From NCBI RefSeq assembly GCF_013280595.1, contig NZ_JAAATY010000014.1, forward strand, positions 106,723-170,722: a DNA stretch of 64,000 nucleotides, in the 5' to 3' direction. A program made the translations under genes and the position numbers. This document shows positions 13,199 through 24,109 of the stretch, piece by piece; the first letter of the stretch is position 1, and each line of letters starts with the position of its first letter. The notes under the pieces were generated by a model. It saw only the letters and a list, made by a program, of their open reading frames with translations, did no database searches and was not told the origin of the DNA. The DNA comes from Kibdelosporangium persicum. GTDB taxonomy: Bacteria; Actinomycetota; Actinomycetes; Mycobacteriales; Pseudonocardiaceae.

Positions 13199-13246
13199 CC
13201 TCGTGAGTGTTTATCCGGGTTAGAACACCGACAAACGCTCACGAGG
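13199..13246. repeat. Dispersed ~47-bp palindrome, copy A (degenerate)
   Basis: Outer arms CTCGTGAG and CTCACGAG are intact, while the inner arm has several mismatches (TTATCCGG against CCGACAAA). It lies between the ABC-F leader and the alpha/beta hydrolase promoter, the only copy at the 5' ends of two divergent genes. Confidence 0.8.
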
Positions 13247-13340
13247 GAACCTGCGCAGGTCGGTGGGGCTATGACCTGAATTACATCGTGCACGACCTTT
13301 CCTGCGGCGACCCTGGGTGCTAACTTCAGTCGTGTACAAC

Positions 13341-14361: not shown

Positions 14362-14374
14362 TACATTGCTTTTG
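14362..14374 (+). promoter_or_regulatory. Leaderless promoter of the kinase-FN3-MoxR cluster
   Basis: TACATT (14362-14367) is a good -10 and the GTG start codon at 14374 lies exactly where the transcript should begin. No ribosome binding site precedes it at a suitable distance. Confidence 0.5.
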
Positions 14375-16005
14375 TGACTGAGGGCGAGGGGAAGCTCGTC
14401 GGCGGGCGTTATCGCTTGGCGAAGGAGCCGATCGGCCATGGCGGTATGGGTGCCGTGTGGCGTGCGCACGACGAGTACCTGCACCGTGACGTGGCGATCA
14501 AGGAACTCACGCTGCGCGAGTCGTACGGACCCGGCGAGTCCGAGTCGGCCGTGCGGCGGATGCTCCGTGAGGCGAGAGCCGCGGCGAAACTCAGGCACCC
14601 GGGCATCGTCACCGTGCACGACGTGGTGACCGAGGACGGCCTGCCGTGGATCGTGATGGAACTGATCGAGGGCCGGTCCCTCGCCGACATCCTCAACACC
14701 GACGGGCCGCTGCCGATCGAGCAGGCCGCGCAGGTGGGGCTGCAGGTGCTGCGGGCGCTGGACGCCGCGCACCAGCGGGGCGTGCTGCACCGGGACGTCA
14801 AACCCGGCAACATCATGATCGACGGCGAACGGGTCGTGCTGACCGACTTCGGGATCGCGGTGATGGACGGCGCGTCCGCGCTGACCGGCACCGGGCAGAT
14901 GCCCGGTTCGCCGGAGTTCATCGCGCCGGAACGAATCGACGGGCGCGAAGCCACGCGAGCGGCGGACATCTGGTCCGTGGGCGTCACGTTGTACAGCGCG
15001 GTGGTCGGCCGGTCCCCGTTCAAGCGCAACGACATCCAGAGCACCCTGGCCGCGGCGGCGTCGCGTGAGCCGGACCCGGACCCGCGGATCGGCCGGTTGT
15101 GGCCGGTCATCCAGGGCCTGCTGCGCAAGCAACCGGCCGAGCGGATGGCGGCGACCGACGCGATCGACCGGCTGGTCAAGATCGCCGGCCCGATGACCGT
15201 GCGCACCGACCAGCCGAAGGCCCCTGCCGGACCCGAGACCTGGATCGACGTCCCGTCCGACCAGATCACGATCGTGGACGAGACCACGCCGAACACCCGG
15301 ACCGCGCCGCCGCTGCTGCCCGTCTACCAGGCACCGGCCGTGCACGGGGACATCACGCTCGATCCCATTCCGCTGAAGCCGCCCAGGAAGCACCGCGGGC
15401 TCGTGATCAGCCTCGGTGCGTTGCTCGTGGTGGCGATCGCGGTCGTCGTGGTCGCGTTGACCGGCAAGCCGCCGCCCGTGGCGCAGGAGAAGCCGCAACA
15501 GCCGACCTCGACCACGCCACCACGGCCGAAAGTGCCCCTTGTCGAGCAGCGGGAGGTGCTGGGCTTCACGATCGGCGTGCCGGCGGACTGGACCCGCAGC
15601 GACTCGACGCAGGACACGCTGAGCGACGTGCTGTACGTCGGGAAGACGTCCGACCCGAAGGTCGGCGCGCCGGAGATCCAGATCCGGCGGGACAACGCCG
15701 GCGGTACGGCGACGCCCAAGGCGTACATCGAGGCGCTGGAGAAGAACGTCGCCACGGCCCGGGAGAACCTCGACTTCCAGCCCCACTTCAAGAACGACAA
15801 CCAGTTGGAGTACGAGTACCGGACCGCGTCGGGTGACGTCTGGTTCCACGTCATGATCCGGGTCGCGGGTCAGAAGGACGGTGCGCTGTACATACTGCGG
15901 TTCACCCAGCACGCCGCCGACCGCAACACGTTGCGGGCCGCGTGGGACTCGGTTCGGCCGGTCGCCGTCGAGATGTTCGACAGCTTCCGCCTCAACACGA
16001 CCTGA
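14374..16005 (+). CDS. Membrane Ser/Thr protein kinase (PASTA-less, with extracellular domain)
   Basis: 543 residues. The catalytic domain (10-270) is complete: glycine loop GHGGMG (21-26), Lys43 in VAIK, HRDVKPGN (139-146) and DFG (158-160), so it should be active. A Pro/Thr-rich juxtamembrane segment precedes one transmembrane helix at 342-363; the outer ~180 residues form a globular domain rather than PASTA repeats. The GTG at 14374 is chosen because a -10 lies directly upstream and the frame's upstream part has no support. It heads a seven-gene cluster (FN3, MoxR, DUF58, transglutaminase-like, pseudokinase, FHA) and is the natural kinase for the FHA protein. Confidence 0.92.
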   Translation: MTEGEGKLVGGRYRLAKEPIGHGGMGAVWRAHDEYLHRDVAIKELTLRESYGPGESESAVRRMLREARAAAKLRHPGIVTVHDVVTEDGLPWIVMELIEGRSLADILNTDGPLPIEQAAQVGLQVLRALDAAHQRGVLHRDVKPGNIMIDGERVVLTDFGIAVMDGASALTGTGQMPGSPEFIAPERIDGREATRAADIWSVGVTLYSAVVGRSPFKRNDIQSTLAAAASREPDPDPRIGRLWPVIQGLLRKQPAERMAATDAIDRLVKIAGPMTVRTDQPKAPAGPETWIDVPSDQITIVDETTPNTRTAPPLLPVYQAPAVHGDITLDPIPLKPPRKHRGLVISLGALLVVAIAVVVVALTGKPPPVAQEKPQQPTSTTPPRPKVPLVEQREVLGFTIGVPADWTRSDSTQDTLSDVLYVGKTSDPKVGAPEIQIRRDNAGGTATPKAYIEALEKNVATARENLDFQPHFKNDNQLEYEYRTASGDVWFHVMIRVAGQKDGALYILRFTQHAADRNTLRAAWDSVRPVAVEMFDSFRLNTT

Positions 16006-16019
16006 CGTGCGAAGACGAC

Positions 16020-16041
16020 GGTTCGGGAGCCCTCCCGAACC
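16020..16041 (+). promoter_or_regulatory. Hairpin immediately before the FN3 gene's ribosome binding site
   Basis: GGTTCGGGAG (16020-16029) and CTCCCGAACC (16032-16041) are perfect arms. Such a hairpin between kinase stop and FN3 start could be a partial terminator or processing site that sets the relative expression of the two genes. Confidence 0.5.
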
Positions 16042-16053
16042 CCGGGAGGTAGC

Positions 16054-17901
16054 TTGCGAACCGTGCTGAAGCGGAGCCGGTCATACGCGCTTGTCGCCGC
16101 GCTGGTCGCGGGCGCGCTCGTCGCCGCCCTGACCGGGGCGGCCACGCCGTTGCCCGGCGGCCAGTTTTCCCTGAGCGGTCACTGGGTGTTCAACTCGCTG
16201 TTGCAGGTGGCGTTCCACATCGACGGCGCGACCACGAACATCGACGCCCACGCCGAGGTGCAGGGCGAGCCGGGCAGCCAGGTCGTGCAGGGCGACACCC
16301 ACGGGTACGTCGTGGGGCCCGCCACGATCACCCAGTTCGACAAGGCGACTCTGGCGTCACAGCAGAGCATCAGCCCGCCCGCCAACGAACAGCCGGTCGG
16401 CATCGAGGTCGTCGGCGGACCGTACCTGGTCTACCGCAACGCCGGGAAAATCGTGCGGCTCGGTGACCCGCCGACGATCATCACGGTCGGTGGCGCGGTC
16501 AGCACGCCCGTCGTCACCTCCGACGGCACGATGTGGCTGCACCGCCAGGATGTCGGCCAAATCTGCACGCTCGCCAAGGACGCGGGCCAGATCGCCGGCT
16601 GCCCGATCGGTGTCCCGGCCGGACACCCCGGCGCGCTGACCATCGTGGACGAAAAGCCCGTGTTCGTGGACACGTTCGGCGGGACACTGCACGTCATCGA
16701 CGGTGGCAAGCTCGGCGCGGGCGTGCCGGTCGGAGCGCCGCTGTCGCCCAACGCGCGGGCGGCCACGCACGATCTCGGCGGGCGTGCGGCCATTCTGGAC
16801 CCACAGCGGCAGACCCTGCTGCTCGCGGACACACGGAACCCGCCAGGCAAGCCGGTCACGGTCGCGTTGCCCACCGGCGACTACGACGGCCCGGTGTCGA
16901 CAGGTGACGTGGTCGTCCTGGTGGACAGGCAAAGCGGCAACGTGTTGACGTACACGCCCGAAGGCGTCCGCAAGGACACCAAGCCCGTCACGCGCAAGAG
17001 TGGACAGCCGCGGCTGAGCCGTGGTGAGGACAACCGGGTGTACGTCGAGGACAGTGACGGCACTCAGGTTCTGGTGGTGGCCAAGGACGGCGACGTCCGG
17101 GACGTGTCCACGGCACAACGACAGGAACCGACGGGACCACCCGCGCCTCCGCCGCCGACCCCCGGTACGTCGACGGAAGCTCCTGTCGCGGCACCGCCAC
17201 CCGCGCCGCCCACGCAACAGCAACCACCGAGGCAGCAGCAGCCCCCGAGGCAACAACAACCGCCCAGGCAGCAGACGGAAAGGCCACGCCAACCGGCGCC
17301 GCCTCCGCCGATCCCGGCGGGTCGCCCTGGTGCCCCGGCTTCGGTGTCGGCCGCGGCAGGCAACGGTTCCGCGACGGTGAACTGGGGCGCCGCACCGGAC
17401 AACCGGGCGAACATCACGGCATACCAGGTGACTTGGCGCGGCAGCACAGGTCAGACTGGGTCCATGACCGTGGGTGGGGGAGCGCGCCGGACCACCGTGA
17501 ACGGCCTGAGCAACGGCGTGAGCTACGTGTTCACCGTCGCCGCGACCAACAGGGTGGGCACCGGTCCGGGTGCGTCGGCTGCCGCCGTGACACCGACCGC
17601 GCCTGTCTCCGTTGCCGAGGCACCTGGCAACTTGAAGGCGACCTACGACGTGGACGACCGGCCGACCCGGGACGTGACGCTCACCTGGCGGCGGCCGGCC
17701 CTCAACGGCGGCACTCTGCTGTACTACCAGGTCACCGCGACCGGGTACGCCACCCAGCAGGTGCAGGGGACCTCGGTGACGTTCGATCAGGTCGAGGCGA
17801 GCAAGGTTGTTACCTTCACGGTCCGGGCGATCACCAGGGCCCCGGACGGCCGGACGCTGACCGGCCGGGCCGCGACCGCGGTCCACCGGGACTCGCAGTG
17901 A
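16054..17901 (+). CDS. Exported protein with beta-propeller-like region and two fibronectin type III domains
   Basis: 615 residues. A signal/anchor (11-30) is followed by ~320 residues of short beta-rich repeats resembling a propeller (TPVVTSDGTMWLH, PVFVDTFGG). Then comes a Pro/Gln linker (about 355-425) with repeated QQQPPRQ units, and two FN3 domains (about 430-520 and 525-612). In the bifidobacterial PFNA cluster the FN3 protein is the surface adhesin-like component. The start is taken as TTG at 16054 with GGGAGGT just upstream; GTG at 16063 is an alternative. The kinase lies 48 bp upstream and the MoxR gene follows. Confidence 0.85.
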   Translation: MRTVLKRSRSYALVAALVAGALVAALTGAATPLPGGQFSLSGHWVFNSLLQVAFHIDGATTNIDAHAEVQGEPGSQVVQGDTHGYVVGPATITQFDKATLASQQSISPPANEQPVGIEVVGGPYLVYRNAGKIVRLGDPPTIITVGGAVSTPVVTSDGTMWLHRQDVGQICTLAKDAGQIAGCPIGVPAGHPGALTIVDEKPVFVDTFGGTLHVIDGGKLGAGVPVGAPLSPNARAATHDLGGRAAILDPQRQTLLLADTRNPPGKPVTVALPTGDYDGPVSTGDVVVLVDRQSGNVLTYTPEGVRKDTKPVTRKSGQPRLSRGEDNRVYVEDSDGTQVLVVAKDGDVRDVSTAQRQEPTGPPAPPPPTPGTSTEAPVAAPPPAPPTQQQPPRQQQPPRQQQPPRQQTERPRQPAPPPPIPAGRPGAPASVSAAAGNGSATVNWGAAPDNRANITAYQVTWRGSTGQTGSMTVGGGARRTTVNGLSNGVSYVFTVAATNRVGTGPGASAAAVTPTAPVSVAEAPGNLKATYDVDDRPTRDVTLTWRRPALNGGTLLYYQVTATGYATQQVQGTSVTFDQVEASKVVTFTVRAITRAPDGRTLTGRAATAVHRDSQ

Positions 17902-17944
17902 CCGCGGGCGGCGGCAAGACGAGAGCATGTGTCTGGAGGAGTGG

Positions 17945-18895
17945 ATGAGCGTGTCGGCGGGCGAGGTCTACGAGCGGGTCGCGGCCAACGTGCAGCGCGT
18001 CCTACGGGGCAAGCCGCAGGTCGTCCGGCTGGCGGTGGCCGCGCTGCTCGGTGAGGGACACCTGCTCATCGAGGACGTCCCCGGTCTGGGCAAGACCACC
18101 CTGGCCCGGTGCCTGGCGCGCAGCGTCGGCGGCAGCTGGAACAGGATCCAGTTCACGCCCGACCTGCTGCCCGGCGACATCACGGGCGTGCAGGTGTACC
18201 ACCAGAACGACGAGAAGTTCGCGTTCCACCCCGGTGGCGTGTTCGCCAACATCGTGCTGGCCGACGAGATCAACCGCGGGACGCCGAAGACCCAGTCGGC
18301 GTTGCTGGAGGTGATGGCCGAGCGGCGGGTCACCGTCGACTCGGTGCGGCACGAGGTGCCGCGGCCGTTCCTGGTGATCGCGACGCAGAACCCGATCGAG
18401 ATGGCCGGGACGTACCGGCTGCCGGAGGCGCAGCTGGACCGGTTCCTGATGCGGCTGCAGATCGGCTACCCGGACCTCGCGTCCGAGGTGATGGTGATCC
18501 TGAGCGACTGCGCCGGGGTCGATCCGGACGAACTGCCCGCGGTGGTGGACATCCCGACGTTGCAGGCGGCCGTCGCCGAGGTGCGGGCGGCACGTGTGCA
18601 CACCGCTGTCGTCGAGTACGCGGCGACGATCGCGGCCGCGACCCGTCAGCACGGGGATCTGCGTTACGGCGCAAGCCCTCGCGGCAGCATCGCGTTGGTG
18701 CGTGCGGCGCAGGCTCTCGCGGCGACGTACGGGCGCGGCTACGTGACTGTCGACGACATCAAGGAAGTCGCGCATCCCGTGCTCGAACACCGGCTCATCC
18801 TGACTCCGGACGCCGAGCTGCGGCAGCGCCGGGCCGAGGACATCGTGCGGGAGTTGCTGAACGAGATCCCCGTGCCGGTCAACACAGGGGCCTGA
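17945..18895 (+). CDS. MoxR-family AAA ATPase
   Basis: 316 residues. Walker A is DVPGLGKTT (44-52), Walker B IVLADEIN (103-110), followed by sensor 1 ATQNPIE and the arginine-finger region LPEAQLDRFLMR. MoxR ATPases act as chaperones that mature or activate partner complexes and nearly always neighbour a DUF58 protein, as here. ATG 17945 follows GGAGGAG. The next gene starts two bp after the stop. Confidence 0.95.
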   Translation: MSVSAGEVYERVAANVQRVLRGKPQVVRLAVAALLGEGHLLIEDVPGLGKTTLARCLARSVGGSWNRIQFTPDLLPGDITGVQVYHQNDEKFAFHPGGVFANIVLADEINRGTPKTQSALLEVMAERRVTVDSVRHEVPRPFLVIATQNPIEMAGTYRLPEAQLDRFLMRLQIGYPDLASEVMVILSDCAGVDPDELPAVVDIPTLQAAVAEVRAARVHTAVVEYAATIAAATRQHGDLRYGASPRGSIALVRAAQALAATYGRGYVTVDDIKEVAHPVLEHRLILTPDAELRQRRAEDIVRELLNEIPVPVNTGA

Positions 18896-18897
18896 CG

Positions 18898-20034
18898 ATG
18901 CGCTTGACCCGGCGTGGAATCGCCACCCTCGCCGCCGCGGCCGTTCTGATCGGGGCGGGCGCGGTGCTGGGTTACGCGGTGCTGCTCGCACTCGGGGCGA
19001 TCGGGGTCGGCGCCGTTCTGGCGGCTCTCGCCGTCGCGGGCCGCAAACCGCGGGTGGACGTGGCCAGGGACGTGTACCCCGACCGGGTCGAACGCGGGAA
19101 GCGGGCCGGTATCACCCTGCGCGTGCACAACCCGGGCACCCGGCGGCAGCCCGGCTTCACGGCGGTGGATCGCTTGGGCGCCAGCACATTGCGGATCGCG
19201 GTGCGGTCGCTGGCCCCGGGTGCCGAACAGTCCTACCTGAACGAACTGCCGACCTGGCAGCGCGGCAGGCACGAGGTCGGGCCGTTGACCCTGCGCCGCA
19301 GTGACGCGCTCGGCCTGGGGCACAACGAGGTTTTCATCGGGACGACCGCGACCTTGTGGGTCTACCCGAGAACACACCCGGTGCGCTCGGTCGCCGGCGG
19401 TCTTCCGTTGCACCACCACGAAGGCGCGGCGAACGAGACGTCACCGCGCGGTTCGTTGGACATCCGTGAGGTCCGCGAGTACGTGCCCGGCGACGAAGTG
19501 CGTCACCTGCACTGGAAAGCGACCGCGCGGACCGGGCAGCTGATGATCCGCGACTACGCCGACCCGCAGCAGCCGCAGTTCACGGTCCTGCTGGACAACC
19601 GCCCGGTCATCCCGGCCGAGCCGGAGTTCGAGGAGGCCGTCGAAGTCGCGGCGTCACTGGTGGTGGCCGCGGCCAAGGCGGACAACCGTTGCCAGCTGGT
19701 CACTCCGGGTGGTCTGGACGTCACCACGACACCCGGGGCGGCCGCCGTCCGGCGACTGCTGGACGAATTGTGTGTGCTGGAGCGCGCTTCGACCACCCAT
19801 CTCCCGCTTGTGCCGACCGCGTTGGCGCAGTCGTGGGGCGGGCAGTTCGTCGTGATCTCGTCCGCGGTGTCGGCCGCCGACCAGGCCGCGTTGGCCAGGC
19901 TGCGCGGGCGTTACGCGGATCTCGTGGTGATCACGTTGGGTCACAGTGCTGTCGCGGTGCCCGGCGGCAAGATTCTGAAAGCGACGGACGCTGTGGACGC
20001 GACCCGGCAATGGCAGACGGTGATCGCCAGATGA
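18898..20034 (+). CDS. DUF58 membrane protein, MoxR partner
   Basis: 378 residues. Two closely spaced transmembrane helices (10-45) precede a beta-rich part and the DUF58 core near 190-215 (REVREYVPGDEVRHLHWKATART), then a von Willebrand factor A-like region (VLLDNR). DUF58 proteins are membrane partners of MoxR ATPases. The gene overlaps the next by 4 bp (ATGA), so translation is coupled. Confidence 0.92.
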   Translation: MRLTRRGIATLAAAAVLIGAGAVLGYAVLLALGAIGVGAVLAALAVAGRKPRVDVARDVYPDRVERGKRAGITLRVHNPGTRRQPGFTAVDRLGASTLRIAVRSLAPGAEQSYLNELPTWQRGRHEVGPLTLRRSDALGLGHNEVFIGTTATLWVYPRTHPVRSVAGGLPLHHHEGAANETSPRGSLDIREVREYVPGDEVRHLHWKATARTGQLMIRDYADPQQPQFTVLLDNRPVIPAEPEFEEAVEVAASLVVAAAKADNRCQLVTPGGLDVTTTPGAAAVRRLLDELCVLERASTTHLPLVPTALAQSWGGQFVVISSAVSAADQAALARLRGRYADLVVITLGHSAVAVPGGKILKATDAVDATRQWQTVIAR

Positions 20035-22025
20035 GAATCCGTGCACTGTGGGTGTTGCTCGCCTCGGCGATCCCCGGTCTGCTGTTCGCGCCGGTCTTCG
20101 GCCTGCGGCCCTTGCTGCTGCCGATCGCTGTCGTCCTCGTGGCCTGCTACGCCGCGGTCGAACTGTGCATCCGGGTCAAGGTTCTGCAGGCATGGCGGCC
20201 GTTGATCACGGCGGTCCTGGGCCTGGTGGCGTTGACCTTCGTGCTGTTCGGTGCGCCGAGCGTGAGCGGTGTGGTCGCAGGCTTGACGGAGTCGTGGCAG
20301 CTCACCCTGCAGTCGACGTGGCCCGTGCGGCCGGACGCCGAACTGATGGTGTTCGTGCCGATCCTCGTGTTGCTGGCCGCCGTGCTCGGCCTCGAACTGC
20401 TGCGCTGGCCCGCTCTCGCGCTGCTGCCCAGCATCGCGGTGCTCGTCCTGAGCCAGACGTTCGTCGCCCTGTCCGGAACGACCGCCGTCCTGGCGGCTCT
20501 GGGATTCGCCGTGGTGGCCGCGGGCTTGTACATGCCGGTGCGGCCGGGCCTGATCCTCGTGCCGACGGTCGTCCTCGGTCTGGTCGGCGCGGCCGTGGCC
20601 GCGTTGATCGACACGGGTGAGCCGTACTCGTTGCGGCAGAGTGATTCCGCGCTGGTTCCGTTGCCGCGGACGATCAGCCCGCTGAGTGAGGTGGGGGCCA
20701 GGCTGGCGAAACCGGAGACGCCGGTCTTCAGCTACACCAGCAGCGGACCGGTCGACCGCTGGCGGCTGGTCGTGCTGACCGAGTTCAACGGCGTCACCTG
20801 GGAGCCCGCCAACGAGTACCGCAGGTTCGGGTCGCAGCTCGATTCGCCGGTCAGCGCCCCGGCGACACGCTACTCGGCGAAGATCCAGGCACCGGACGGG
20901 CAGTGGCTGCCCAGCCAGGCGATGCCGGCGTCGGTCACCGGCACCGCGCCGCTCGTCGACCCGTCAACGGGCGCGCTGCTGCTGCCCGAACGCCGGGGCG
21001 CGGTGTCGTACGAGCTGAACTGGTGGGAACCGCAGGCCGGCGACAATCTCCAGGACGCCGCCCTGACGTCGACCGGCCAGCCCGGCGGTCTCGGCGTGAT
21101 CCCACCGGGCATCGCCGAACTGGCCACCAGGGCCACCGCGGGGATGCGGCCGTCGTTCCGGACCGCGCTGGTGCTGGAGCAGTACCTCCGCCAGAACTAC
21201 AACACCGCGACCGGCGGGGACCTGCCGACCGGTAGCGGCTGGCCGCAGTTGCGCAGGTTCCTGCTGGAGACCAAGCGGGGCACGAGCGAGCAGTTCGCCG
21301 CGTCCTATGTGGCCCTGGCCAGGATCGTGGGCATCCCGGCGCGGCTCGCGGTGGGATACCGCGCGCCGCGGACGCCGGTCGGCGCGGACACCGTCGTGCA
21401 CAACCGCGATGTCTATGTCTGGCCCGAAGTCTCGGTCGCCGGAGTCGGGTGGGTGCCGCTTGATCCGATGGGCGGGGCGAGTGGTGCCGGACCGGCGCCG
21501 TCCCGGCTGGCGCAGGTGACCGCGAAGGCCCGGGCCGAGTTGCCGCCGACGAACCAGTTGCCCGATCCGCCGCTGCCCGCCTCGGAGACCGACGACGACA
21601 ACGGCGGCGGACCGGCCGTCTGGCAGGTGGCGCTGCTGGTCGTGCTCGGTCTCGTGGCGTTGCTTGTCCTTGCTGTGCTCGCTGTTCCGCTGGTCAAGGT
21701 GTTCCGGACGCTGCGGCGCAAACGGCAGACCGGGACGCAGGGAGTCGTGGCCGCGTGGCTGGAGGCCAAAGACCTCATGCGGGCGTACGGAACCCGTGTC
21801 ACACCGGGGATGACCGCCCGTGACCTGGCCAGAGCGACCTCCGATCGTTCTATTGTGGACAGCCTGACCGGACTGGCCGGACAGCTCGATGTGGCCCTGT
21901 GGTCCGGTGCGGGGGCGACCGACGGTGCGGTCGCCGAGGCGTGGACCTCCGTCCGGCGGATCCGCAGAACGTTGGCCGGTCGCTCGTGGGGTGCGAGACT
22001 CCGGGCGGTGTTCGTGATCCGATGA
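20031..22025 (+). CDS. TgpA-like membrane protein with apparently inactive transglutaminase domain
   Basis: 664 residues. About six transmembrane helices (8-195), a periplasm/wall-facing part, a transglutaminase-like core (370-480) and a last helix (~548-570) with a cytoplasmic tail. The core is recognisable (EQFAASYVALARIVGIPARLA), but the catalytic Cys position is Ser419 (RGTSEQFA) and the His position is Tyr462 (VYVWPEV); only Asp478 remains. A classic Cys-His-Asp transglutaminase/protease reaction is therefore unlikely, and a structural or binding role is more probable. It is coupled by 4-bp overlaps to the genes on both sides. Confidence 0.9.
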   Translation: MRIRALWVLLASAIPGLLFAPVFGLRPLLLPIAVVLVACYAAVELCIRVKVLQAWRPLITAVLGLVALTFVLFGAPSVSGVVAGLTESWQLTLQSTWPVRPDAELMVFVPILVLLAAVLGLELLRWPALALLPSIAVLVLSQTFVALSGTTAVLAALGFAVVAAGLYMPVRPGLILVPTVVLGLVGAAVAALIDTGEPYSLRQSDSALVPLPRTISPLSEVGARLAKPETPVFSYTSSGPVDRWRLVVLTEFNGVTWEPANEYRRFGSQLDSPVSAPATRYSAKIQAPDGQWLPSQAMPASVTGTAPLVDPSTGALLLPERRGAVSYELNWWEPQAGDNLQDAALTSTGQPGGLGVIPPGIAELATRATAGMRPSFRTALVLEQYLRQNYNTATGGDLPTGSGWPQLRRFLLETKRGTSEQFAASYVALARIVGIPARLAVGYRAPRTPVGADTVVHNRDVYVWPEVSVAGVGWVPLDPMGGASGAGPAPSRLAQVTAKARAELPPTNQLPDPPLPASETDDDNGGGPAVWQVALLVVLGLVALLVLAVLAVPLVKVFRTLRRKRQTGTQGVVAAWLEAKDLMRAYGTRVTPGMTARDLARATSDRSIVDSLTGLAGQLDVALWSGAGATDGAVAEAWTSVRRIRRTLAGRSWGARLRAVFVIR

Positions 22026-23200
22026 CGCCGACCTTGCTCGGCCGCGGCCCGGTCGCCGTGGTCTACGCCAGCACCGCCGCGGGACGGCCCGTGGCGGTGA
22101 AGGTGTTTCCCGGCAAGTTCGACCGCAAGACCCTGGCCGTGATCGAACGGGAACGCCAGAAGCTGGTCGAACTCGCGGCGTCGGTGCCGGTCCTGCCGAT
22201 CGACGCCCTCGGCCAGTGGGAGGACAAGCACGCGCTGCGGATGGAGTTGTGCCCCGAGTCGCTGACCACCCGGGTGAAGCGCAGCGGTGCGCTGGACGTC
22301 GAGGACGTCGTCGAACTGGGATACGGCCTGGCGTCCGCGCTGGCCGCGGCGCATGCGGCCGGCGTGCTGCACGGTGGTGTCAGCCCGGACAACGTGCTGT
22401 TCCGTTCCTCCGGGCAACCGGTGCTGTCGGACTTCGGAGTCGCGACCCGGCAGGCATTTCGCCGGAACCCGTTGCACGCTGTGGAGTTCGTGCCGCCGGA
22501 GACGCTGCGGACCGGCGCCGCGGACGAACGTACCGACGTCTACGGCCTGGGCGCCGTGCTGCACTTCGCGCTGACCGGCGAGTCGCCGCACCCGAGCCGG
22601 ATCGGGGAGCAGCCGGGCGAGCGTGTGCTGCGGGTGCTCGGCGACCCGGTCCCGGCCATCAGCAGGCCGGACGTCCCGATCGAACTGTCCACGATGGTCG
22701 CGCGGATGCTCACGCCCGAAGCGGCACGCCGGCCGGACAAGGCGACGTGGGCGTTGGAACGCCTGGGCGCCATGCTGCCTCGGCCCGTCATGAACATCAC
22801 CGTCCCGGCGCCCAGACGGAAGTCGCGGATCGGCTACTTCGTGGCGGGCGGCGTTCTCGCTGCCGGGCTCGCGGCCGTGCCGTTCCTGTGGCCCGAGTCG
22901 GACGCGGCCGCACCGCAACCGTTGCCGCCCCAGCCGATCACTGTGGAGCTGGCTGAGCCGGTCGACCAGACCGACCATGTGGTGCTGACGTGGACGACTT
23001 CCCAGACGCTGGACGGCGTCGTGGTCGTGACGCCGGACGGACAGCCCGCCCGGCACGTGTTCTTCGAACGCGGCCAGACCACGATGCGGGTTCCCGTCGA
23101 GCCGAAGCGCGGGTACTGCTTCCAGATTCGGGGAACCAACAGCGAGCGGGTCTTCGAGAGCAGGCCGAAGCCGGTTCGAGGGGCGGTGTGCCAGAGGTGA
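22022..23200 (+). CDS. Membrane pseudokinase of the Ser/Thr kinase family
   Basis: 392 residues. The fold is clear (VAVK with Lys27, DFG at 137-139, YGLGAVLHFALTGESP), but the catalytic loop reads HGGVSPDN (117-124) instead of HRDxKxxN. The catalytic Asp is Gly119 and the following Lys is Ser121, so phosphotransfer should fail. The glycine loop is also altered (GRGPVA). One transmembrane helix (~262-280) precedes an FN3-like extracellular part. Nucleotide binding may persist. It probably acts as an allosteric or scaffold partner of the active kinase at 14374. The ATG overlaps the upstream stop. Confidence 0.88.
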   Translation: MTPTLLGRGPVAVVYASTAAGRPVAVKVFPGKFDRKTLAVIERERQKLVELAASVPVLPIDALGQWEDKHALRMELCPESLTTRVKRSGALDVEDVVELGYGLASALAAAHAAGVLHGGVSPDNVLFRSSGQPVLSDFGVATRQAFRRNPLHAVEFVPPETLRTGAADERTDVYGLGAVLHFALTGESPHPSRIGEQPGERVLRVLGDPVPAISRPDVPIELSTMVARMLTPEAARRPDKATWALERLGAMLPRPVMNITVPAPRRKSRIGYFVAGGVLAAGLAAVPFLWPESDAAAPQPLPPQPITVELAEPVDQTDHVVLTWTTSQTLDGVVVVTPDGQPARHVFFERGQTTMRVPVEPKRGYCFQIRGTNSERVFESRPKPVRGAVCQR

Positions 23201-23217
23201 CGCCAGGAGGTCGGAAC

Positions 23218-24015
23218 GTGAACCCTGAGTTGAGATACGCGGGCGGACTGCTGTTGCCGCAGGGACATGACAGCCTGGTCCACGGGGTCGGCCGCGCGGT
23301 GTCCGGATCGGTGCACGCGCTGGCGCTCGGCGGCGGCTACTCGGTCGGCCCGAGCGAGGGCCGGATAGTCTACTTCGGACGCAACCGGCCCGAGGTGCAC
23401 GTCTGCATCGGCGAGGACGACCGCCAGGTCAGCCGCAGGCACGGCGAACTGCGGCACTGGCAGGGCCGCTGGTGGCTGCGCAACACCGGCCGCCGCCCGA
23501 TCCGGCTGCCGCGATCCCAGTGGCTGTTCGCCGACGAGGACGCGATTCCCCTGGCGGAGGGCTACACACCGCTGCACGTCCCGGGTTCCCGCGAGCGCGA
23601 GCACCTGCTCGAAGTGTTCGTGACGGGTTCGGACGGCAGCAAACCGGCGTCGCGGCACACCGAGCGGACCGACATGCCCCGGCGGTACGAGCTGAGCGAC
23701 GAGGAGCAGATCGTCCTTGTCGTGCTGGGACAACGGTATCTGCTGCACGACCCGACGGCGCGACCGCTCACGTGGCACCAGGCGGCCGAACAGTTGGCCG
23801 AACTGCGCCCGGAGATCGCGTGGACGGCCAAGAAGGTCGAACACCGGGTGAAGGTCGTGCGGGAACGGCTGTCGCGCGACGGCGTGCCCGGCCTGACCCG
23901 GGAGGAGGTCGGCGAGCCGGTCGGCAACGCCCTGAACGACAACCTGATCAGGGAACTGCTGCGCTCGACGACCCTGGTGCCCCGGGACCTCGCCATGCTC
24001 GAAAACCCCTCGTGA
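23218..24015 (+). CDS. FHA-domain protein
   Basis: 265 residues from a GTG with a perfect AGGAGG seven nt upstream. The FHA domain (about 35-115) has the phosphothreonine-binding signature FGR, SRRH and N (RNTGRRP). The rest is helical: a region ~155-225 (LSDEEQIVLVVLGQRYLL, EHRVKVVRERL) resembles a winged-helix-type segment, perhaps DNA- or RNA-binding. It closes the seven-gene cluster and should recognise a phosphothreonine made by the first kinase. Its last codon and stop (TCG TGA) lie inside repeat copy B. Confidence 0.88.
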   Translation: MNPELRYAGGLLLPQGHDSLVHGVGRAVSGSVHALALGGGYSVGPSEGRIVYFGRNRPEVHVCIGEDDRQVSRRHGELRHWQGRWWLRNTGRRPIRLPRSQWLFADEDAIPLAEGYTPLHVPGSREREHLLEVFVTGSDGSKPASRHTERTDMPRRYELSDEEQIVLVVLGQRYLLHDPTARPLTWHQAAEQLAELRPEIAWTAKKVEHRVKVVRERLSRDGVPGLTREEVGEPVGNALNDNLIRELLRSTTLVPRDLAMLENPS

Positions 24016-24055
24016 GTGTTTATCAGGGTTAGAACCCGGATAAACACTCACGAGG
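24008..24055. repeat. Dispersed ~47-bp palindrome, copy B
   Basis: CCTCGTGAGTGTTTATC and GATAAACACTCACGAGG are near-perfect arms around AGGGTTAGAACCC. It overlaps the stop codon of the FHA gene and ends 55 bp before the next gene. Confidence 0.9.
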
Positions 24056-24109
24056 GAATTGGGGAATACCCGCTCAGCGGGCGGCGTGTTTGGTGTAGCG
24101 TTCCGGCCC

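What the first reader, a model, noticed from the sequence alone, without database searches (positions are those of the whole stretch)
14374..24015. PFNA-like kinase/FN3/MoxR cluster with a built-in pseudokinase and an inactive-looking transglutaminase
Seen: the genes run kinase, FN3, MoxR ATPase, DUF58, transglutaminase-like protein, second kinase, FHA; from DUF58 through the second kinase they overlap by 4 bp. The second kinase has HGG for HRD and Ser for the catalytic-loop Lys; the transglutaminase domain has Ser419 and Tyr462 at the Cys and His positions. Known: bifidobacteria carry a PFNA cluster (kinase, FN3, AAA ATPase, DUF58, transglutaminase-like), and pseudokinases often regulate active kinases. 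Inference: here one active kinase signals through a pseudokinase, an FHA reader and a non-catalytic wall-facing protein. Two predicted pseudoenzymes in one operon make a scaffold-like sensing complex more likely than wall remodelling.
Basis: partly seen in the sequence, partly recalled or inferred. Interest (0 to 1): 0.8.

Follow-up and report, generated by a model that had tools for sequence, protein, structure and literature searches.

The report
Double pseudo-enzyme PFNA-like gene cluster
A soil actinobacterium carries a seven-gene membrane-protein cluster in which a kinase-like protein and a transglutaminase-like protein both lack the residues needed for catalysis, and relatives across the bacterial family show the same losses, so the two are probably working non-enzymatic parts and not recent mutations.

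Summary
Seven genes (14374-24015, +): kinase PK1, FN3, MoxR, DUF58, TgpA-like transglutaminase (TG), second kinase PK2, FHA. The lesions are not local. In 54 distinct PK2 proteins of the bacterial family, HRD-Asp and the loop Lys are absent (0/54), while VAIK-Lys, loop Asn and DFG-Asp are invariant (54/54). TG relatives carry Ser (rarely Thr or Arg) for Cys and a non-His for His. PK2 and this TG co-occur in 42 of 150 family genomes (3 PK2 only, 3 TG only, 102 neither). PK2 is one clade with HGDx[ST] relatives beside it; PK1 belongs to another. The proposed relay PK1-PK2-FHA is not general: PK1 is in 6 of 40 PK2 neighbourhoods, FHA in 9, and two loci have PK1 without PK2. PK2 travels with TG, FN3, MoxR and DUF58. 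Best reading: a PFNA-type MoxR-DUF58 membrane complex built on a non-catalytic papain-like domain and a probably ATP-binding, non-phosphorylating pseudokinase; active kinase and FHA are an add-on in one lineage. By residues and architecture PK2 fits none of the seven bacterial pseudokinase families in the review read (no family models tested). Function is untested.

The parts
14374..16005 (+). PK1: intact Ser/Thr kinase (VAIK, LHRDVKPGN, DFG); TM segment and extracytoplasmic C-terminal domain by eye
   Evidence: GTG start, 543 aa
16054..17901 (+). FN3 protein: N-terminal hydrophobic segment and long middle region (by eye, not modelled), FN3 domains near the C-terminus
   Evidence: fn3 63.8 bits, two stretches; start codon uncertain
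17945..18895 (+). MoxR AAA+ ATPase (VPGLGKT by eye, IVLADE)
   Evidence: (AAA_3 206 bits, AAA_lid_2); start 17945 or 17927
18898..20034 (+). DUF58 protein (vWA-like)
20031..22025 (+). TgpA-like multi-pass protein with a non-catalytic-looking transglutaminase core (S419, Y462, D478)
   Evidence: 4-bp overlaps on both sides
22022..23200 (+). PK2: pseudokinase (K27, E44, N124, D137 kept; HRD Asp and Lys lost), hydrophobic segment near residues 270-290 (by eye), extracytoplasmic beta-sandwich with C366 and C390
23197..24015 (+). FHA protein with a helical C-terminal domain that looks HTH-like (by eye)
   Evidence: (G61, R62, S79, R80, N96 invariant in 11 of 11)
24008..24058 (.). 51-nt near-palindrome that contains the FHA stop codon; candidate operon end
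   Evidence: high-copy in the genome

Best explanation
This is a PFNA-type envelope complex of the Pseudonocardiaceae. MoxR and DUF58 (chaperone and co-chaperone) act on a multi-pass TgpA-like protein whose extracytoplasmic papain-like domain no longer catalyses but serves as a binding or structural module, with FN3 as an outer partner. PK2 is a single-pass pseudokinase: its cytoplasmic domain keeps the Lys, Asn and Asp that hold Mg-ATP but has lost the catalytic base and the loop Lys, so it most likely binds ATP (or a nucleotide signal) and changes conformation without phosphorylating anything, linking its extracytoplasmic beta-sandwich to the MoxR-DUF58 machine inside. In the lineage of the window (Kibdelosporangium, a Saccharothrix and relatives) an active kinase (PK1) and an FHA reader share the operon and may tune it. 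Shown: gene content, residues, their conservation, co-occurrence, phylogeny. Inferred: complex formation, nucleotide binding, direction of signalling, role of PK1 and FHA.
For: 54 distinct PK2 proteins: HRD Asp 0/54, loop Lys 0/54; K27, N124 and D137 54/54; E44 E in 47, D in 6, Q in 1; C366 and C390 54/54. dN/dS (NG86) to a congeneric orthologue (L060): PK2 0.21, TG 0.21, FHA 0.10; PK2 to a second, more distant congener (L061) 0.46: purifying selection. PK2 versus TG in 150 same-family genomes: 42 both, 3 PK2 only, 3 TG only, 102 neither; Fisher p 6e-30, with cut-offs I chose after seeing the lists and genomes that are not independent. 35 of 40 PK2 neighbourhoods hold MoxR, 30 TG, 30 FN3. The 44 HG[GASR] pseudokinases form one clade (SH-aLRT 100); relatives with HGDx[ST] lie next to it. 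TG core: the 47 rows of the clade that holds the window lack Cys and His. Among TG loci drawn by TG alone, a kinase or FN3 lies in the same stretch in 23 of 30 rows lacking Cys and/or His and in 0 of 11 with both (hand count from the tree). Confident kinase fold with a short activation segment, 24 residues from DFG to the E of PPE.
Against: No biochemistry. ATP binding is inferred from residues; G7 of the G-loop is replaced in 13 of 54 and gapped in 2, and the DFG Gly is replaced in 4 of 54. In 5 of 40 neighbourhoods PK2 has none of TG, MoxR, DUF58 or FN3 in the stretch, though four of those five genomes have TG elsewhere. PK2 is convergent to TG in 19 of the 30 neighbourhoods that hold both, so co-transcription is not general. 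Two loci run with PK1 and no PK2, so PK2 is not indispensable. The dN/dS of 0.46 to L061 shows PK2 evolves fast. That the beta-sandwich is FN3-like is only weakly supported.
Confidence: 0.5

Rival explanations
1. One reading: PK1 phosphorylates PK2, and the FHA protein docks on the phosphorylated PK2 and carries the signal on, as in the mycobacterial PknB - MviN pseudokinase - FhaA module.
For: All three sit in one operon here, and PK1, PK2 and FHA occur together in 6 of 40 neighbourhoods; the FHA residues G61, R62, S79, R80 and N96 are invariant in 11 of 11; a complex of the FhaA FHA domain with the intracellular domain of Rv3910 (MviN) is in the Foldseek list (PDB 3oun; the phospho-Thr mechanism is recalled).
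Against: 34 of 40 PK2 neighbourhoods show no intact kinase motif; 31 of 40 have no FHA; PK1 loci without PK2 exist; no shared Thr in the PK2 linker in seven PK2s from such clusters; FHA paralogues occur widely without PK2 (both 23, PK2 only 22, FHA only 21, neither 84 of 150).
Confidence: 0.15
2. PK2 is an enzyme of another kind: it uses the retained Mg-ATP site for a non-phosphoryl reaction, as SelO does (AMPylation).
For: Selection has kept K27, N124 and D137 in 54 of 54 while the catalytic Asp is gone; the loop HGGVSPDN superficially resembles SelO's HGVMNTDN (PMC12599244, Table 1, section 4).
Against: The residue before the Asn is variable in PK2 (G 21, H 13, A 5, N 4, T 3, S 3, D 2, Y 2, R 1 of 54), whereas in SelO it is an Asp that I recall as functional; the best sequence matches among solved structures are PknB/PknA-type kinases.
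Confidence: 0.13
3. PK2 keeps weak kinase activity without the canonical Asp.
For: Some eukaryotic pseudokinases do (recalled); the ATP-site residues are intact.
Against: Both the base (Asp) and the loop Lys are missing in 54 of 54; the segment between DFG and APE is short and has no conserved Thr in the 40 rows looked at.
Confidence: 0.07
4. The TG domain is an enzyme that uses Ser419.
For: Position 419 is Ser in most relatives and Asp478 is kept in the relatives of the same family.
Against: The His position is Leu, Tyr, Phe, Val, Glu, Thr, Gln, Ala or Met in relatives; two relatives have Arg at position 419 (L166, L234).
Confidence: 0.05

Closest known systems
PFNA operon of Bifidobacterium (pkb2-fn3-aaa-atp-duf58-tgm, optional prpC, hypothetical, fha)
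   Same: Same five core genes in the same order, with an FHA gene at the end (PMC8430577, abstract and passages).
   Different: The window has an extra pseudokinase between tgm and fha and no prpC; Pkb2 is a working kinase and tgm is described as a transglutaminase-like enzyme. Bifidobacterium sequences were not reached here, so the state of their catalytic residues was not checked.
TgpA locus of Pseudomonas aeruginosa (PA2875-2873)
   Same: TgpA_N plus transglutaminase core; profile match to TgpA 6g49 (E 5.4e-11). That the two neighbours are MoxR and DUF58 is recalled.
   Different: TgpA has an intact triad, transglutaminase activity and is reported as essential (PMC3507681, passages); here Cys and His are lost.
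Bacterial pseudokinase families ActPs1-3, GLW, DYD, DLHK, CP1 (PMC12599244)
   Same: Kinase-fold proteins with lost catalytic motifs; several of these families are actinobacterial or membrane-linked. Some CP1 members, like PK2, lose one motif only (the Leptospira example VLIK/Hkslcpgn/DFS in Table 1 shows the same residue pattern).
   Different: As described in the passages and sections read, ActPs1-3, GLW, DYD and DLHK lose the ATP Lys (with or without the metal-binding motif), while PK2 keeps both in 54 of 54; CP1 lacks TM regions and is fused to a COG3899 domain, PK2 is not. The review names 42 kinase families in all; whether PK2 falls into one of the other 35 was not tested.
MviN pseudokinase - FhaA (Mycobacterium)
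   Same: Pseudokinase and FHA protein in one envelope pathway.
   Different: MviN (VALT/Lsidhpsr/Y-- in PMC12599244, Table 1) is degenerate at all motifs; 31 of 40 PK2 loci have no FHA neighbour.

Membership tests
PFNA cluster | Core genes kinase, fn3, MoxR ATPase, duf58, transglutaminase-like in this order | tested here: met
PFNA cluster | Optional FHA gene at the end | tested here: met
PFNA cluster | Optional prpC phosphatase gene | tested here: not met
   The seven genes between 14374 and 24015 are not phosphatases; the feature is optional in bifidobacteria (PMC8430577)
PFNA cluster | First kinase catalytically competent by sequence | tested here: met
   PK1 VAIK Lys / LHRDVKPGN / DFG
PFNA cluster | Kinase phosphorylates the MoxR ATPase; cluster is one transcript | not testable with these tools
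   Reported for B. longum (PMC8430577, passages)
TgpA-type transglutaminase | TgpA_N plus Transglut_core architecture | tested here: met
TgpA-type transglutaminase | Cys-His-Asp triad | tested here: not met
   S419, Y462, D478
Active Ser/Thr kinase (PK2) | HRD Asp and HRDxK Lys | tested here: not met
   0 of 54
Pseudokinase (PK2) | Kinase fold lacking at least one of VAIK Lys, HRD Asp, DFG Asp | tested here: met
ActPs1-3, GLW, DYD, DLHK pseudokinase families | Loss of the ATP Lys (as described in PMC12599244) | tested here: not met
   K27 in 54 of 54; no sequence models of these families were on hand
CP1 pseudokinase family | No TM region, fused to a COG3899 domain (PMC12599244, section 10) | tested here: not met
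   PK2 has a hydrophobic segment (by eye) and a beta-sandwich tail; no other Pfam domain than kinase-like ones
SelO AMPylase | Non-phosphoryl nucleotidyl transfer | not testable with these tools
   Only the loop was compared

The most novel reading that the evidence does not exclude
A bacterial envelope sensing machine in which both the kinase-fold and the transglutaminase-fold partner are ancestral pseudo-enzymes: an ATP-binding pseudokinase acts as a nucleotide-gated (or alternatively catalytic, non-phosphorylating) transmembrane switch on a MoxR AAA+ chaperone that remodels a dead-transglutaminase receptor. If so, the bifidobacterial 'transglutaminase' should also be tested as a receptor and not only as an enzyme.
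Probability: 0.25. Interest if true: 0.75.

Novelty: new variant of a known kind. Interest (0 to 1): 0.5.

Why it matters
Bacterial pseudokinases are largely uncharacterised, and most of the families in the review I read lose the ATP site. Here catalysis was lost in one clade while the ATP-site residues were kept in every sequence examined, which separates 'binds ATP' from 'phosphorylates' and makes the role of nucleotide binding directly testable. It also argues that part of the actinobacterial MoxR-DUF58-transglutaminase loci, the PFNA-like ones, are not enzymes at the wall. The HGDIK, HGDx[ST] and HGGx[ST] forms may be stages for tracing how a kinase turned into a pseudokinase.

Tried and rejected
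DUF58 as a third pseudo-component: its vWA metal motif is D[TND]R instead of DxS in the window's type, but similar forms occur in loci with an intact Cys-His transglutaminase (for example L131, L141, L144), so it does not separate the kinds.

A local-mutation or pseudogene reading: rejected by conservation and dN/dS.

PK2 as a decayed duplicate of PK1: rejected by the kinase tree (quick method, SH-aLRT only, root at the midpoint, so the order of losses is inference).

Anti-phage defence: kinase-level matches to PADLOC models for PK1 and PK2; none of the other five proteins matched at 1e-5; not pursued.

Bifidobacterium comparison: a 16S primer pattern found no genome in 394 sampled, so the catalytic residues of its TGM were not checked.

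PK2 tail as a true FN3 domain: profile comparison weak (best E 0.0032, probability 9.9; control between the two FN3 domains probability 97).

A phospho-Thr site for FHA in the PK2 linker: none shared by the seven compared.

Against a clean series of intermediates: of the four HGD relatives, L229 (a gene near a contig start) reads Ser at the VAIK Lys and GFE for DFG in the alignment, and G263 (HGDIK) scores 221 bits against 211 for the next ordinary kinase.

Corrected on checking: my notebook (entry 2) says that no reviewed pseudokinase family keeps VAIK and DFG while losing HRD; section 10 and Table 1 of PMC12599244 show that some CP1 members may.

Rows left out: A1 left out four PK2 proteins over 700 aa (L068, L070, L073, L075) and those of L048, L051 and L052, which fell under the script's threshold. 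L068 and L070 belong to the same contigs as L151 and L154, which are in A4 and so in the 54. Searches show loops without Asp in L073, L075, L048 and L052. The loop of L051 was not resolved. L109 and L168 (HGD) were set aside from the 54. The samples behind 54 and 40 overlap in species.
Full report
1. What is there. Seven genes on the + strand run from 14374 to 24015: PK1, FN3, MoxR, DUF58, TG, PK2, FHA. Three junctions overlap by 4 bp (DUF58/TG, TG/PK2, PK2/FHA). A 51-nt near-palindrome follows and contains the FHA stop codon; a second copy lies at 13199-13249.

2. The two lesions. PK2 reads LHGGVSPDN where an active kinase such as PK1 reads LHRDVKPGN; K27, E44, N124 and D137 remain. TG reads S419 and Y462 where TgpA has its Cys and His, with D478 kept. 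PK2 is modelled as a confident kinase fold (mean pLDDT of blocks mostly above 90 over residues 11-250), a low-confidence linker that includes the hydrophobic stretch, and a confident beta-sandwich at about 305-386. The best Foldseek matches are bacterial PknB, Stk1 and PknA kinases, followed by eukaryotic kinases.

3. Are they local? No. In 150 genomes of the same family, 45 hold PK2 at E 1e-40 or better (hand list used). Over 54 distinct PK2 sequences from these genomes and from the named genomes: HRD Asp 0/54, loop Lys 0/54; K27, N124, D137, G9 and H117 54/54; E44 47 E, 6 D, 1 Q; DFG Phe 45/54, DFG Gly 50/54. Named carriers (motifs): Kibdelosporangium, Saccharothrix, Actinophytocola, Amycolatopsis, Lentzea, Prauserella, Saccharopolyspora and Crossiella; of the 20 loci L149-L168, 19 lack the Asp and one, Pseudonocardia sp. 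CNS-139, has HGDVT. The other 60 of the 80 returned loci show HRD (two with Asn for the loop Lys). For TG, the 47 rows of the clade that holds the window lack Cys and His (one is a fragment that shows only the Cys position), with Ser in most, Thr in L058 and L109 and Arg in L234; L166, not in that tree, also has Arg.

4. Origin. In a tree of 99 kinase domains with the loop columns removed, 44 pseudokinases form one clade (SH-aLRT 100). Four relatives with HGDx[ST] (L109, L168, L229, L230) lie next to it within a set at 95; three of these four sit beside a Ser- or Thr-type TG; the fourth, L168, shows none in its stretch. L229 is further eroded in the alignment (Ser for the VAIK Lys, GFE). PK1 is in a separate set at 99. 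In 296 genomes of the class one genome outside the family stands out, G179 (354 bits, HGDVT). G263 (221 bits, next best 211) is notable only because it aligns over the whole profile and reads HGDIK, with Asp and Lys kept. Of the 30 loci read, one is the window, two are these, 26 carry HRDxK and one gave no readable motif. No HGG form was seen outside the family in that sample; the sample held one other genome of the family, without a match. Degenerate kinases near Ser-type TG also occur in another family (L117, L127, L137), apart from PK2 in the tree, which suggests parallel loss; L113 and L123 are too long-branched to place.

5. Who travels with whom. PK2 and TG by genome: 42 both, 3 PK2 only, 3 TG only, 102 neither. 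Of the TG-only genomes, two have a divergent HGD gene beside TG and one has PK1; of the PK2-only genomes, one has a TG fragment next to PK2 on a short contig (L237) and two show none in the stretches read (L235/L045, L236). In 40 neighbourhoods of PK2, 35 hold MoxR, 30 TG, 30 FN3, 9 FHA and 6 PK1; 16 are scored convergent with TG, 9 co-directional, 2 divergent, 13 not scored; three of the unscored (L048, L051, L052) are convergent by the table. Five have PK2 beside MoxR without TG in the stretch; in one such genome (G055) FN3, DUF58 and TG lie about 12 kb away without MoxR. Two loci have PK1-FN3-MoxR-DUF58-TG (L232 also FHA) and no PK2. The ten TG rows whose loci carry PK1, the window among them, form one set (SH-aLRT 93).

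6. TG in the class. From a search of 196 genomes of the class by TG alone I read 40 stretches, taken mainly from the top of its list; 39 of 40 show MoxR, DUF58 and TG, and L110 lacks MoxR near a contig start. Rows with Cys and His form one clade of 11 (SH-aLRT 99) with no kinase or FN3 detected in the stretch. Of the 30 rows from these stretches lacking Cys and/or His, 23 have one or both (hand count from the tree; threshold 50 bits, anywhere in the stretch). The window's genome has three more such loci above the cut-off, none with Cys.

7. FHA. G61, R62, S79, R80 and N96 are invariant in 11 of 11; that these are phosphothreonine-binding positions is recalled. The model gives an FHA fold plus a helical C-terminal domain. 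Calling that domain HTH-like is by eye. FHA relatives are found in 44 of 150 family genomes with a looser tie to PK2 than TG has (23 both, 22 PK2 only, 21 FHA only, 84 neither; p 3e-4).

8. Literature. PFNA: PMC8430577 (abstract and passages), PMC6803598 (passages), PMC12067865 (passages); none of the passages seen describes the cluster in Pseudonocardiaceae or a pseudokinase in it. Pseudokinase families: PMC12599244 (outline, passages, sections 4, 6, 10 and 14). It classes 42 bacterial kinase families, seven of them entirely or largely pseudokinases; six lose the ATP Lys as described, CP1 varies but is cytosolic with other domains. TgpA: PMC3507681 (passages). Papain-like proteins: PMC10318531 (passages), which names inactive transglutaminase-core proteins such as EPB42. 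MoxR-vWA systems: PMC7159879 (passages). The listings of searches (each capped at 8 to 25 rows) showed no paper on this pseudokinase; subscription journals are mostly not held.

9. Judgement. The pseudo-enzyme calls are solid at sequence level. The mechanism (ATP-gated pseudokinase working with MoxR-DUF58 on a non-catalytic TG receptor) is inference.

Noticed in passing
window 13199-13249 and 24008-24058: A 51-nt near-palindrome flanks the cluster (90% identical copies). The own genome has 346 forward and 337 reverse matches to a 27-nt part with up to 3 mismatches (a palindromic copy may count on both strands), against 0 for the reversed control: a very abundant palindromic repeat, perhaps a bidirectional terminator.
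   Followed up: partly
L112, L119, L124 (own genome C3, C33, C22): Three further MoxR-DUF58-TG loci in the same genome, with Ala at the Cys position; none has Cys.
   Followed up: partly
L163 and L167 (Amycolatopsis): Two pseudokinase genes in tandem beside the cluster, one with HGR and DFE motifs.
   Followed up: no
L117, L127, L137; also L113, L123: Degenerate kinases near Ser-type TG outside the order, with the VAIK and DFG motifs eroded in most (L137 keeps K and reads DAG); apparently independent of PK2.
   Followed up: partly
L041 and L242 (genome G055): MoxR and PK2 sit together about 12 kb from FN3-DUF58-TG, as if the two had moved as a pair.
   Followed up: no
L111 / L249 (genome G263): A kinase with HGDIK (Asp and Lys kept, Arg lost) that aligns to PK2 over its whole length, in a stretch with a Ser-type TG: possible picture of the ancestral active form.
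   Followed up: partly
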